A stretch of DNA of 64,000 nucleotides from Kribbella pratensis. GTDB taxonomy: Bacteria > Actinomycetota > Actinomycetes > Propionibacteriales > Kribbellaceae. How positions within the stretch are numbered: the first letter of the stretch is position 1; each line of letters opens with the position of its first letter. The notes below the pieces were generated by a model. That model made no database searches and was not told the origin of the DNA. It saw nothing but the letters and a program-made list of their open reading frames with translations. A program made the position numbers and the translations under genes. Below, piece after piece: positions 11,885 to 15,028 of the stretch. Location: contig NZ_SODP01000001.1 of NCBI RefSeq assembly GCF_004365355.1, positions 999,473-1,063,472 on the forward strand, in the 5' to 3' direction.

Positions 11885-12880
11885 TCAGTCCCGGCGGGTG
11901 CGGGGGAGGGCCACGCTGGACACCAACCCGGAGATGATGTCGGCTGCACCGCGCCCACCGAGATGCGCCTCAGCCGCTGGGAGCACCCGGTGCGCGAGGA
12001 CCGGCACCGCGAGCTCCTGGATGTCGTCCGGCAGCACGAACTCGCGTGCGTCGAGCGCGGCCGCCGCACGCGCCGCCCGGATCAGGTGCAGCGTCGACCG
12101 CGGGCTGGCGCCGAGCCGGAGCTCCTGCGACCGCCGGGTCGCCCCGACCAGGGCGACGGCGTACTCCTTCACCGACTCGGACACGTGCACGGACTGCACC
12201 GTCTTCACCAGCCGCAGGATCTGCTGGCCGTCGGTGACCGGCTGCAGACTCAGCAGTGGGTCGTCGGCGGCGTGCCCGTCGAGCATCCGCAGCTCGGCGG
12301 CCGGCTCCGGATAGCCCATCGAGACGCGGGCCATGAACCGGTCCCGCTGCGCCTCGGGCAGCGGGTAGGTGCCTTCCATCTCGATCGGGTTCTGCGTCGC
12401 GATGACCATGAACGGAGAGTCCAGGTGGTACGTCGTGGTGTCGACGGTGACCTGGCGCTCCTCCATCGACTCCAGCAACGCGGCCTGGGTCTTCGGCGAG
12501 GCACGGTTGATCTCGTCGCCCACCACGATGTTCGCGAACACCGCGCCGGGCTTGAACTCGAAGTCGCGGATCTCCTGGTTGAAGACGGAGACGCCGGTGA
12601 TGTCCGACGGCAGCAGGTCCGGCGTGAACTGGATCCGGCGCACGGTGCAGTCGATCGACTTCGCCAGCGCCTTCGCCAGCATCGTCTTGCCGACGCCCGG
12701 CACGTCCTCGATCAGCAGATGTCCCTCGGCCAGCAGCACGGTGATGGCGACCTCGACAACGTCGGGTTTGCCCTCGATCACCTGCTCCATGGCCCGGCGG
12801 ACGCGGCCCGCCACCTCGGACAGCTCGTCGAAGTCCCCGGCTCCTGCCAGCGGCGAGCTGGTCGCGGTGGTGCTGCTCAC
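11885..12880 (-). CDS. MoxR family AAA ATPase
   Basis: 331 residues from GTG 12880. Walker A is EDVPGVGKTMLAKALA. Walker B is VVGDEINRASPKTQAALLE. Sensor and arginine-finger elements are ATQNPIEMEGTYPLPEAQRD. The C-terminal lid follows. MoxR ATPases act as chaperones in maturing cofactor or surface complexes, usually with DUF58 partners. GTG 12880 has GGGGAGGA seven bases upstream, and the encoded N-terminus matches family length. An in-frame ATG at 12982, also with a GAGGG, would add 34 low-complexity residues. First gene of the moxR-DUF58-tgpA operon, divergent from mraZ. Confidence 0.88.
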   Translation of the reverse strand: MSSTTATSSPLAGAGDFDELSEVAGRVRRAMEQVIEGKPDVVEVAITVLLAEGHLLIEDVPGVGKTMLAKALAKSIDCTVRRIQFTPDLLPSDITGVSVFNQEIRDFEFKPGAVFANIVVGDEINRASPKTQAALLESMEERQVTVDTTTYHLDSPFMVIATQNPIEMEGTYPLPEAQRDRFMARVSMGYPEPAAELRMLDGHAADDPLLSLQPVTDGQQILRLVKTVQSVHVSESVKEYAVALVGATRRSQELRLGASPRSTLHLIRAARAAAALDAREFVLPDDIQELAVPVLAHRVLPAAEAHLGGRGAADIISGLVSSVALPRTRRD

Positions 12881-13125
12881 TCTGTGTCCTCCCCATTCGT
12901 TGACTGCCGACACATTCTCACCCGCTGTAGGGGTCGGGCCTAGAGCGGCGGGGGTTTCGTTACCTGGTGTTTCGGAGTTCATCGGCGCACGCCCTCACGG
13001 GGTCGGAGTCGTCCCTCCAAGCGTACGGGCGGGAAAAGCCTGCGTGCGCCGTACGACGTTGCTGGCCCGCAGAAGGTTCACGACCAACTGCGCCGAATGG
13101 TTCATCAGTTCCCCGGCGGAGCGGA

Positions 13126-13225
13126 GTGGAGGAAAGGGAGTGGAGCGGAGTGGAGGAAAGGGAGTGGAGCGGAGTGGAGGAAAGGGAGTGGAGCGAAGTG
13201 GAGGAAGGGCGTGGGGCGATGTGGA
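13126..13225 (+). promoter_or_regulatory. Extended array of paired GTGG boxes (24-bp tandem repeat) upstream of mraZ
   Basis: GTGG occurs at 13126, 13140, 13150, 13164, 13174, 13188, 13198, 13211 and 13221. From 13140 on the boxes form pairs 10 bp apart, and the pairs repeat every 24 bp (AGTGGAGCGG, then AGTGGAGGAAAGGG). The box core matches that of the proximal mraZ operator. Binding by MraZ is inference from the family's preference for tandem short G-rich boxes near its own gene. Confidence 0.6.
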
Positions 13226-13316
13226 GGACTCGACGGCTGAGCCGGCAGCGACACGCGGGAAAGCAGGCGCGGATTCAGGCGGCGCGGGGGCGGAATGGGG
13301 CGGAAGTTGGTTGACG

Positions 13317-13364
13317 GTGGTGGAAAGTGGAGTAAGGTGGAGCGCAGTGGAACTGAAGTGGTGG
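13317..13364 (+). promoter_or_regulatory. Candidate MraZ operator, GTGG boxes at 10-bp spacing
   Basis: GTGG at 13317, 13327, 13337, 13347 and 13358 (with an overlapping copy at 13361), most followed by A. The 10-bp phase puts all boxes on one face of the helix. It lies 45-90 bp upstream of the mraZ start. MraZ proteins are ring-forming repressors that bind tandem short repeats upstream of their own operon, so autoregulation of the dcw cluster is the likely role. Confidence 0.7.
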
Positions 13365-13408: not shown

Positions 13409-13840
13409 GTGTTCCTCGGAACTCACTTCCCCAAGCTCGACGACAAGGGCCGGCTGTTCCTGCCGGCGAAGTTCCGCGACGAGCTGGCCGACGGTCTGGT
13501 GATCACGCGTGGGCAGGAGCGATCGCTGTCCGTGTGGCCGGAGCGTGAGTTCGTCCAGCTGACCGAGCAGTTGAAGCAGGCTCCGATCACCAACAAGGGT
13601 GCGCGGGACTACCTACGGATGTTGTTCGCCGGCGCCTCCAACGAGATGCCGGACAAGCAGGGCCGGGTCACCATCCCACCGATGTTGCGTGATTACGCGT
13701 CACTGGATCGCGACTGCGTCGTCATCGGGGCGATGAACCGGGTGGAGATCTGGAACACGGAGAACTGGAACCGGTACTCCGCGGAGCAGGAGCAGGCGTT
13801 CGCCGACCTCTCCGAGGAAGTGCTGCCAGGCATCTTCTAG
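13409..13840 (+). CDS. mraZ: Transcriptional regulator MraZ
   Basis: 143 residues with two AbrB-like (SpoVT/MraZ) repeats. The first starts at [20 protein letters not shown]. The second contains [20 protein letters not shown]. This is the full family length. Start GTG 13409 follows GGGGAGG at 13397-13403. MraZ sets expression of the division and cell-wall cluster by binding repeats upstream of itself, and a matching GTGG array lies at 13317-13364. It is the first gene of the dcw cluster, separated from rsmH by a structured leader. Confidence 0.96.
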
Positions 13841-13881
13841 CTGCACAGATGAACAGCTGAACAGAGTGCGAGGACACACCG

Positions 13882-13997
13882 ACCGTCCGGTGAGATCACG
13901 GGTCCGACTTCCGACCTGCCGTGTTGGCGCCACTTCCCCGGCGCCAAGACCATCAGGTACTTCCCCGGGAGGCGTACCCGCGATCTGACCGGACGGT
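13882..13997 (+). ncRNA. Structured RNA leader upstream of rsmH (candidate mraW RNA motif)
   Basis: An outer stem pairs 13882-13897 with 13982-13997 (15 of 16 positions; arm core ACCGTCCGGT). It encloses two hairpins. The first is a perfect 8-bp stem, TTGGCGCC at 13924-13931 with GGCGCCAA at 13940-13947, with loop ACTTCCCC. The second closes with GGTAC (13956-13960) and GTACC (13974-13978). ACTTCCCCGG occurs at both hairpins (13932 and 13959). A conserved structured RNA called the mraW motif has been described in actinobacterial 5' regions of this gene. I assign it by position and structure, not by model search. Confidence 0.55.
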
Positions 13998-14062
13998 GCT
14001 GTCTACGTACCACAAGACCTGCGGGGGCAGGGGTCGCTCCCGCGGCGACGGGAAGGGTCGAG

Positions 14063-15028
14063 ATGAACGCTGCGGAGCGGCATGTGCCGGTGATGCTGGA
14101 GCGCGTGGTCGCGCTGCTGGCGCCGGCACTCGCGCATCCCGGCGCTGTCGTCGTCGACGCGACCCTCGGCCTCGGCGGTCATTCCGAGGCGTTCCTGCGG
14201 GAGTTCCCCGACGTACGGCTGATCGGCTTCGACCGGGACCCGGCCGCGCTGCGGCTGGCCGGCGAGCGACTGGCGCCGTACGAGGACCGGATCACGCTCG
14301 TGCACGCCGTGTACGACGAGCTTCCGCGCGCACTGGCGGATCTCGGGGTGCCGGCGATCGACGGGATCCTGTTCGATCTCGGCGTCTCGTCGATGCAGCT
14401 GGACGAGGCCGACCGCGGGTTCGCGTACGCACAGGACGCGCCGCTGGACATGCGGATGGACCCGACCGGCCCGACCACGGCGGCCGACATCGTCAACACC
14501 TACAGCGCGGCCGACCTGGCCCGGATCCTGTTCCAGTACGGCGAGGAGAAGTTCGCCCGCCGGATCGCGGACCGGATCGTGCGCGAGCGAGAGACCGAGC
14601 CGTTCACCAACAGCGCGCGGCTGTCCGAGCTGGTGCGCAACGCGATCCCGCAGGCGGCCCGGCGTACCGGGGGACACCCCGCGAAGCGGACGTTCCAGGC
14701 GCTGCGGATCGAGGTGAACGGCGAGCTCGACGTACTGCGTCGTGCCCTGCCCGCGGCACTGCAGGGGCTGGCGTTGCACGGGCGGATCGTGGTGATGAGC
14801 TACCACTCGCTCGAGGACCGGATCACCAAGCAGGCGTTCGCGGCCGCCACGAAGTCCGACGTACCGGACGACCTGCCGGTGATCCCGGCCGGACATGAGC
14901 CCTATCTGAAACTGCTGACCCGCGGCGCCGAGCGCCCGACCGAGGAAGAGGTCGCGGCGAACCCGCGCGCCGCGTCCGCTCGGGTCCGGGCGGCGACACG
15001 AATCCGGGAGAAGGGACTGGTGGCTTGA
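14063..15028 (+). CDS. rsmH: 16S rRNA m4C1402 methyltransferase RsmH
   Basis: 321 residues, usual for RsmH/MraW. The SAM-binding motif [16 protein letters not shown] is at about residues 30-45, with FDRDPAAL after it. Other family blocks are [26 protein letters not shown] and [11 protein letters not shown]. It methylates N4 of C1402 in the ribosomal P site. ATG 14063 follows GGGAAGGG. The stop is immediately followed by the overlapping start of ftsL (TGATG), so the two are coupled. Confidence 0.97.

What the first reader, a model, noticed from the sequence alone, without database searches (positions are those of the whole stretch)
13126..13225. Regular 24-bp array of paired GTGG boxes far upstream of mraZ
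Nine GTGG boxes lie at 14/10/14/10/14/10/13/10 spacing, using the same core as the proximal mraZ operator about 90 bp downstream. MraZ forms rings that bind tandem boxes. This extra platform is much longer than the few boxes described for other MraZ operators and could give cooperative or looped repression, or reach the divergent moxR promoter.
Basis: partly seen in the sequence, partly recalled or inferred. Interest (0 to 1): 0.7.

Follow-up and report, generated by a model that had tools for sequence, protein, structure and literature searches.

The report
Remote MraZ operator upstream of mraZ
Upstream of a cell-division gene cluster in a soil bacterium (Kribbella) sits a second, remote set of what look like binding sites for the cluster's own repressor MraZ; related paired sites, usually turned the other way round, recur in many actinobacteria, which points to an overlooked second switch point, still untested at the bench.

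Summary
The array is real: nine GTGG boxes at 13126-13224, spaced 14/10/14/10/14/10/13/10. It is locus-specific: GTGGAG-N4-GTGGAG occurs four times in the 8.37-Mb genome, all upstream of mraZ.

The window belongs to Kribbella. Of 23 clade-mates (window included) with the region held, 22 carry paired boxes there, forward in 12, inverted in 10, with at least three orientation changes on the tree. Of the 14 Kribbella outside that clade none has an upstream pair, but 8 have an inverted pair behind mraZ.

Beyond Kribbella, 62 of 132 mraZ loci (130 actinobacterial) carry an inverted 10-bp pair at -500 to -125, 6 a forward one; an equally long stretch further upstream has 2 of 129. Thirteen genomes of one genus without detectable mraZ have none upstream of rsmH. 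The pairs occur with or without divergent moxR.

Best reading: a remote auxiliary MraZ operator, widespread, whose window copy is forward and expanded in 24-bp steps. MraZ binding is strongly inferred, not shown; looping or cooperation with the promoter operator is inferred, and helical phasing was inconclusive. New variant of a known kind.

The parts
13126..13224 (+). Distal array: nine GTGG boxes, four complete 10-bp pairs (13140/13150, 13164/13174, 13188/13198, 13211/13221) plus box 13126 with a degenerate partner at 13116
13118..13228 (+). 24-bp tandem repeat, 4.7 copies; unit GGAGCGGAGTGGAGGAAAGGGAGT
13317..13364 (+). Proximal MraZ-type operator: boxes 13317, 13327, 13337, 13347 at 10-bp steps, 13358 at 11, with overlapping GTGGTGG at 13320 and 13361
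   Evidence: boxes at 10-bp steps seen in all 38 Kribbella loci; 10-bp and 20-bp spacings in 115 and 114 of 136 other loci at -130 to -15
13311..13316 (+). Probable -35 element TTGACG of the mraZ promoter
   Evidence: my reading of the sequence; not reported by the strict sigma-70 consensus scan; inference
13333..13338 (+). Probable -10 element TAAGGT (TANNNT), 16 bp after the -35, inside the proximal boxes
   Evidence: my reading; TANNNT lies in 141 of 362 proximal pairs and in none of the distal pairs counted; inference
13244..13259 (+). Conserved block GGCAGCGACACGCGGG between distal array and promoter; function unknown
   Evidence: seen in the printed and aligned upstream regions of the window's near relatives
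13409..13840 (+). mraZ (143 aa, GTG start), the presumed binder
   Evidence: Pfam MraZ E=2.1e-40; model matches M. pneumoniae and M. genitalium MraZ, including DNA complexes
11885..12982 (-). Divergent moxR-type AAA ATPase, start codon 144 bp from the first distal box
   Evidence: (AAA_3 E=3.7e-64)
14063..15028 (+). rsmH (mraW); in eight Kribbella species without an upstream pair the mraZ-rsmH gap carries an inverted pair

Best explanation
The array is a remote auxiliary operator for MraZ, the repressor encoded just downstream. The primary operator (13317-13364) overlaps the probable mraZ promoter; MraZ bound there should block RNA polymerase. The distal boxes start 96-191 bp upstream of the first proximal box, hold no -10 element, and are best explained as extra MraZ landing sites that raise MraZ occupancy at the promoter, most simply because one multi-subunit ring, or two touching rings, bridge distal and proximal DNA. 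In the other actinobacteria that have such a site it is one or a few inverted pairs; in the window's lineage it is forward and has grown by 24-bp duplications. Shown here: the boxes, their concentration at mraZ, their recurrence, and their absence upstream of rsmH in one genus where mraZ was not found. Strongly inferred: that MraZ binds them. Inferred: that they strengthen autorepression, and by bridging.
For: Locus specificity: 4 matches in 8.37 Mb, all upstream of mraZ; in 38 Kribbella genomes (324 Mb) 125 matches, 82 at the mraZ locus (38 proximal, 44 distal, the distal ones in 27 genomes), 43 elsewhere; that background predicts 0.008 distal matches. Recurrence in Kribbella: 30 of 38 loci with a distal pair, 0.55 in shuffles. 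Outside Kribbella, at -500 to -125: inverted pair in 62 of 132 loci (four near-duplicates dropped), forward in 6, five of those six at -143 to -174 where they may be promoter operators; an equally long stretch at -950 to -575 has inverted pairs in 2 of 129 and forward in 1. Shuffle expectations: 0.38 of 57 loci (-450 to -115) and 0.54 of 79. Spacing: distances between inverted GTGG boxes peak at 10 bp, 65 of 132 loci, next best 21, against 2 of 129 in the control stretch. Same core and 10-bp step as the proximal operator. Genomes without mraZ: 0 of 13 have pairs within 900 bp upstream of rsmH. Orientation needs at least three changes among Kribbella that have upstream pairs, and 8 species without an upstream pair have an inverted one behind mraZ.
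Against: No binding or expression data. Described MraZ sites have three to four boxes at 10 bp ((AAAGTGKN3)3 in M. gallisepticum, PMC5282649; four repeats in B. cenocepacia, PMC7761207; a four-box M. genitalium complex); a pair is shorter than any of these. Helical phasing between distal and proximal sites, expected for short loops, was not shown (Rayleigh p 0.41 at 10.5 bp, 0.037 at 10.0, 0.040 at 11.5; eight periods tried, distances not phylogenetically independent). 70 of 132 loci, and 21 of 34 families of the class draw, show no inverted pair by this definition, so it is not required for MraZ control. Seven Kribbella loci with both regions held have no qualifying pair. The 13 control genomes without mraZ are all one genus code, so this is one lineage, not thirteen tests; a fourteenth genome without a match (G170, 93% complete, 850 contigs) was not examined.
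Confidence: 0.6

Rival explanations
1. The distal boxes are MraZ sites serving the divergent moxR-DUF58-transglutaminase genes rather than mraZ.
For: In Kribbella and other loci moxR diverges from the same gap; inverted pairs point towards moxR; 27 of 63 loci with divergent moxR carry an inverted pair.
Against: 30 of 47 loci with a co-directional DUF3040 gene and no moxR hit in the upstream stretch held carry the inverted pair too (the four near-duplicates are not dropped in these counts). The 14 Kribbella outside the window's clade have no pair in the moxR-mraZ gap, and 8 have one behind mraZ. In the window itself the boxes point away from moxR. No -10-like element lies in any distal pair counted.
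Confidence: 0.12
2. The sites bind MraZ but act without contacting the promoter: as a local reservoir or sponge, or as a roadblock to transcription entering or leaving mraZ.
For: Variable copy number, position and orientation fit loose constraint; sites behind mraZ and sites between DUF3040 and mraZ could block polymerase.
Against: In Kribbella the upstream gene diverges, so no read-through from it reaches the array. The strong inversion bias outside Kribbella, 62 inverted to 6 forward, is not predicted by a sponge.
Confidence: 0.15
3. The boxes are recognised by another DNA-binding protein that shares a GTGG-like core.
For: The commonest distal linkers (AGCGAA, AGGAAA) differ from the promoter linkers with TA (AGTAAG, AGTAAA); pairs rather than triplets or quadruplets.
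Against: Concentrated at the mraZ locus in Kribbella, same core and 10-bp spacing as the proximal operator, not found upstream of rsmH in 13 genomes of one genus without detectable mraZ.
Confidence: 0.08
4. A tandem-repeat expansion without function (slippage at a G-rich stretch), or a G-rich stretch acting through non-B DNA such as a quadruplex.
For: The near-identical 24-bp units look like a local expansion: the nearest relative has two pairs. A G-quadruplex in the S. aureus mraZ promoter region is reported (PMC11796246, abstract and passages seen).
Against: Explains the copy number, not the recurrence of 10-bp GTGG pairs in 22 of 23 clade members and 62 of 132 other loci, nor the sharp 10-bp peak.
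Confidence: 0.05

Closest known systems
Promoter-proximal MraZ operators (E. coli, recalled; M. gallisepticum, PMC5282649; B. cenocepacia, PMC7761207; M. genitalium four-box complex, PDB title)
   Same: GTG(G)-core direct repeats at 10-bp steps upstream of mraZ, read by an oligomeric MraZ ring; the window's proximal operator 13317-13364 looks like this kind.
   Different: In the passages I saw those are single clusters of three to four boxes. Here a second set of pairs lies further upstream (or behind mraZ), mostly inverted outside Kribbella, with 22-24 bp often between pairs.
Auxiliary operators of looping repressors (lac, gal, deo, ara; recalled, from no call)
   Same: A primary operator at the promoter and further copies some distance away on either side.
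   Different: MraZ boxes have a direction and MraZ is a ring; no loop has been shown here, and the phasing test was inconclusive.
Control of mraZ by MtrA in Dietzia (PMC9602371, passages seen); control of ftsEX by MraZ in C. glutamicum (recalled)
   Same: Control at or by the head of the dcw cluster in actinobacteria.
   Different: The passages seen describe MtrA binding the mraZ promoter region; none of them mentions remote or inverted MraZ boxes.

Membership tests
MraZ operator | GTG-core direct repeats at 10-bp steps | tested here: inconclusive
   Met within each pair; between pairs the step is 13-14 bp. Described sites have three or more boxes at 10 bp (PMC5282649, PMC7761207, passages).
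MraZ operator | Found at mraZ and tied to the presence of mraZ | tested here: met
   0 of 13 genomes of one genus without detectable mraZ, which is one lineage only
MraZ operator | Overlaps the promoter it controls | tested here: not met
   86 bp lie between the last distal box and the probable -35, and no distal pair counted holds a TANNNT element; the proximal operator meets this feature, given my reading of the promoter
MraZ operator | Bound by MraZ | not testable with these tools
   needs EMSA or footprint
MraZ protein family | MraZ domain (twice) and fold | tested here: met
   PF02381 E=2.1e-40, two stretches; model mean pLDDT 86.9, best PDB match 1n0e E=4.9e-13, also DNA complexes 9r4j and 9sz7
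Auxiliary looping operator | Distance-phased cooperation with the primary operator | tested here: inconclusive
Dispersed genomic repeat | Copies elsewhere in the genome | tested here: not met
   all four exact matches lie at mraZ

The most novel reading that the evidence does not exclude
Many actinobacteria control their division cluster with a two-site MraZ switch: forward boxes at the promoter and inverted pairs about 90-270 bp away, bridged by MraZ rings, so that the ring reads DNA at two places at once. Lineages re-site, invert or multiply the remote site, and the window holds the forward version with the most complete pairs (four) among the 38 Kribbella loci examined.
Probability: 0.4. 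Interest if true: 0.75.

Novelty: new variant of a known kind. Interest (0 to 1): 0.6.

Why it matters
MraZ heads one of the most conserved gene clusters in bacteria, yet why a repressor that reads three or four boxes should be a ring of eight or more subunits (recalled) is unclear. A recurrent remote operator would give the spare subunits a possible job and makes the question testable with one deletion. It would also change how mraZ promoter fragments are cut for reporter work in actinobacteria, since short fragments would miss the remote site.

Tried and rejected
Dispersed repeat or mobile element: rejected. moxR operator as general purpose: not supported. Helical phasing as evidence for looping: inconclusive, not used (16 loci without a recognisable promoter box were left out there). 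A reversed-letter control motif in the class sample (9 of 79 loci on the reverse strand, 2 of 79 forward) was set aside because GGTG overlaps real GGTGG boxes; shuffles, a far-upstream control stretch and the spacing spectrum were used instead. In one search the far-upstream control was mis-cut for the few loci with short upstream sequence; one search repeats it with correct bounds and equal length (-950 to -575, 129 loci) and is the one cited. The one-mismatch genome search (89 forward, 83 reverse; control 74 and 108) shows that single weak matches carry no information in the genome at large. Three boxes at 10-bp steps in the own genome: 7 matches (control 4 and 13), 2 of them the proximal operator; the other five do not resemble the distal unit and were not followed up. 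The sigma-70 consensus scan found no promoter; the -35/-10 are my reading. Rfam: one sub-threshold mraW RNA match. The first alignment of six upstream regions was wrong because two loci were not oriented; redone. Of the 6 forward matches among 132 loci, five sit at -143 to -174 and may be promoter operators of genes with longer leaders; not sorted further.

Rows dropped: of 79 loci, 21 Kribbella were left out of the 'other' set (the genus is counted instead), and L101 for lack of upstream sequence, leaving 57, two of which (L119, L120) are titled Clostridiales and Bacillota. Of the class draw, genus g72 (G193, contig end) was not fetched. Four near-duplicates were dropped. Two of the 132 loci (L071, L079) have less than 500 bp upstream; G004 has 186 bp.

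Papers: MraZ searches listed nothing I recognised as being on remote or inverted MraZ boxes; only passages of PMC9602371, PMC8475190, PMC7761207, PMC5138195, PMC11796246 and PMC5282649 were seen, the other listed papers by title and start of abstract only. The library holds open-licence papers only; the E. coli MraZ paper was not held, and no paper on the 2026 M. genitalium MraZ-DNA structures was listed.

Full report
Observation. The window holds nine GTGG boxes from 13126 to 13224 with the stated spacings, inside a 24-bp tandem repeat of 4.7 copies. Their number in 100 bp is the maximum of the whole 64-kb window on either strand and was not reached in 2000 dinucleotide shuffles of the intergenic region (9 against at most 8; ten-bp pairs 7, three of them proximal, against at most 2). 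The boxes form pairs 10 bp apart; a degenerate extra half stands at 13116.

Surroundings. moxR (AAA ATPase) diverges from 12982, mraZ starts at 13409, rsmH at 14063. The proximal operator (boxes 13317, 13327, 13337, 13347, 13358) lies between and behind a probable -35 TTGACG (13311-13316) and -10 TAAGGT (13333-13338), read by eye; the consensus scan did not report them. The MraZ protein is ordinary: Pfam MraZ, and a model of mean pLDDT 86.9 that matches M. pneumoniae and M. genitalium MraZ, among them cryo-EM complexes with promoter DNA and with a four-box promoter, released in 2026 (entry titles only).

Locus specificity. GTGGAG-N4-GTGGAG occurs four times in the 8,365,383-bp genome, three in the distal array and one in the proximal operator. 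In the 38 genomes of the genus (324 Mb) there are 125 matches: 82 lie within -700 to +900 of an mraZ start, of which 38 are the proximal operator and 44 are distal, in 27 genomes; 43 lie elsewhere, a density that predicts 0.008 distal matches. A dispersed repeat is not what this is.

Relatives in the genus. With a pair defined as GTGG-N6-GTGG and at most two departures from AG after the boxes, distal pairs occur upstream (-450 to -115) forward in 12 and inverted in 10 of 38 loci, and downstream of mraZ (+432 to +760) inverted in 11 and forward in none; any of these in 30 of 38, shuffles 0.55. On a tree of moxR, mraZ and rsmH the window belongs to a group of 24 (support 100/100; the root is not inferred); of the 23 with upstream sequence held, 22 have the pairs and one (G011) does not. 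Forward and inverted forms need at least three changes on that tree. The nearest relative G019 (97% identity over the genes) has two forward pairs where the window has four, so the extra 24-bp units look recent. Of the 14 species outside that group none has an upstream pair; 8 have the inverted downstream pair and 6 have neither by this definition. Twelve of those 14 have only 174-218 bp between moxR and mraZ. Three species of the window's group have both kinds.

Beyond the genus. Of 57 other loci from named genomes, 33 have an inverted upstream pair and none a forward one (-450 to -115; shuffles 0.38 and 0.09). In a class-wide draw (158 genomes searched, 144 with mraZ) I fetched 79 loci: one for each of 70 of the 72 genera with mraZ (not the window's own, and not one whose contig ended too soon) and nine further loci of the window's order; 30 have an inverted pair (-500 to -125; shuffles 0.54), 6 a forward one (shuffles 0.35). 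Both sets together, four near-duplicates dropped: 62 inverted and 6 forward of 132, 130 of them actinobacterial by title or draw; an equally long stretch further upstream gives 2 inverted and 1 forward of 129. By family in the class draw, 13 of 34 families have at least one locus with an inverted pair; f29 (4 of 4), f2 (10 of 11), f5 (3 of 4) and f16 (4 of 6) are rich, f10 (0 of 4), f15 (0 of 6) and f17 (0 of 4) have none. The distance between inverted GTGG boxes peaks at 10 bp (65 of 132; next best 21 of 132, at 7 and at 22 bp); in the control stretch 2 of 129. A 22-bp step also occurs between pairs in Kribbella.

Link to MraZ. Fourteen genomes of the draw have no mraZ match: 13 of family f18, genus g19, and G170, which is fragmentary and was not examined. 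I take f18 to be Streptomyces, a guess that no call confirms. The 13 have rsmH, and none of 13 has a pair within 900 bp upstream of it. They are one genus code, so this is one lineage, not thirteen tests. Distal pairs lack the TANNNT element (0 of 25, 20, 16, 53 and 47 pairs in the five sets) that 141 of 362 proximal pairs hold, so they are not second copies of the promoter.

Whose operator? Inverted pairs occur in 27 of 63 loci with divergent moxR, 30 of 47 with a co-directional DUF3040 gene, and 6 of 26 with neither hit in the stretch held. A shared function for a divergent gene is therefore unlikely; what the loci share is the mraZ promoter. Distances from the promoter box to the nearest inverted pair run from 86 to 344 bp in 64 loci, 22 of them at 86-100 (near-duplicates not removed there). 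A test for helical phase was inconclusive.

Mechanism. Most likely MraZ binds the distal pairs and this raises its hold on the promoter, by bridging or by ring-to-ring contact. That MraZ binds such repeats as an octamer is stated for Mollicutes (PMC5282649 and PMC7761207, passages seen). The orientation bias is unexplained: by my own reasoning, forward and inverted remote sites would need different DNA paths on one ring. The changes of orientation within Kribbella show that either can be kept.

Known or new. MraZ, its promoter-proximal repeats and autorepression are known. My searches of the held library listed no paper that I could recognise as being on remote or inverted MraZ boxes; subscription papers are mostly not held, so prior description cannot be ruled out. 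I file it as a new variant of a known kind: an MraZ operator with remote, often inverted, paired boxes.

Noticed in passing
window 13840-14063: The mraZ-rsmH gap holds a stretch that is strikingly alike in the 38 printed Kribbella loci and gives a sub-threshold match to the mraW RNA (RF01746, 19.3 bits against a cut-off of 50, E 0.71; 13924-13947). In eight Kribbella species without an upstream pair the inverted MraZ-type pair follows behind this stretch.
   Followed up: partly
window 13244-13259 and 13075-13104: Two further blocks shared by the window and near relatives in the moxR-mraZ gap: GGCAGCGACACGCGGG, and GGTTCA twice, 24 bp apart in the window. Possible sites of another regulator or of the moxR promoter.
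   Followed up: no
L095, L096, L100, L104, L110, L116, L121, L133, upstream of mraZ: In several loci of Arthrobacter/Sinomonas type inverted boxes stand both near the end of the DUF3040 gene, before a hairpin-like stretch, and again about 90 bp before the promoter boxes (by eye); some carry CCACTTTCCAC, a 7-bp step (21 of 132 loci show a 7-bp inverted step).
   Followed up: partly
G053, G072, G087, G100, G113, G123, G133, G143, G153, G162, G171, G180, G189: All 13 sampled genomes of family f18, genus g19, have rsmH but no mraZ match: apparent loss of mraZ in one lineage.
   Followed up: partly
L018 (G035), L019 (G016), L020 (G006): Three Kribbella species carry the forward upstream array and the inverted downstream pair together.
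   Followed up: no
   Followed up: no
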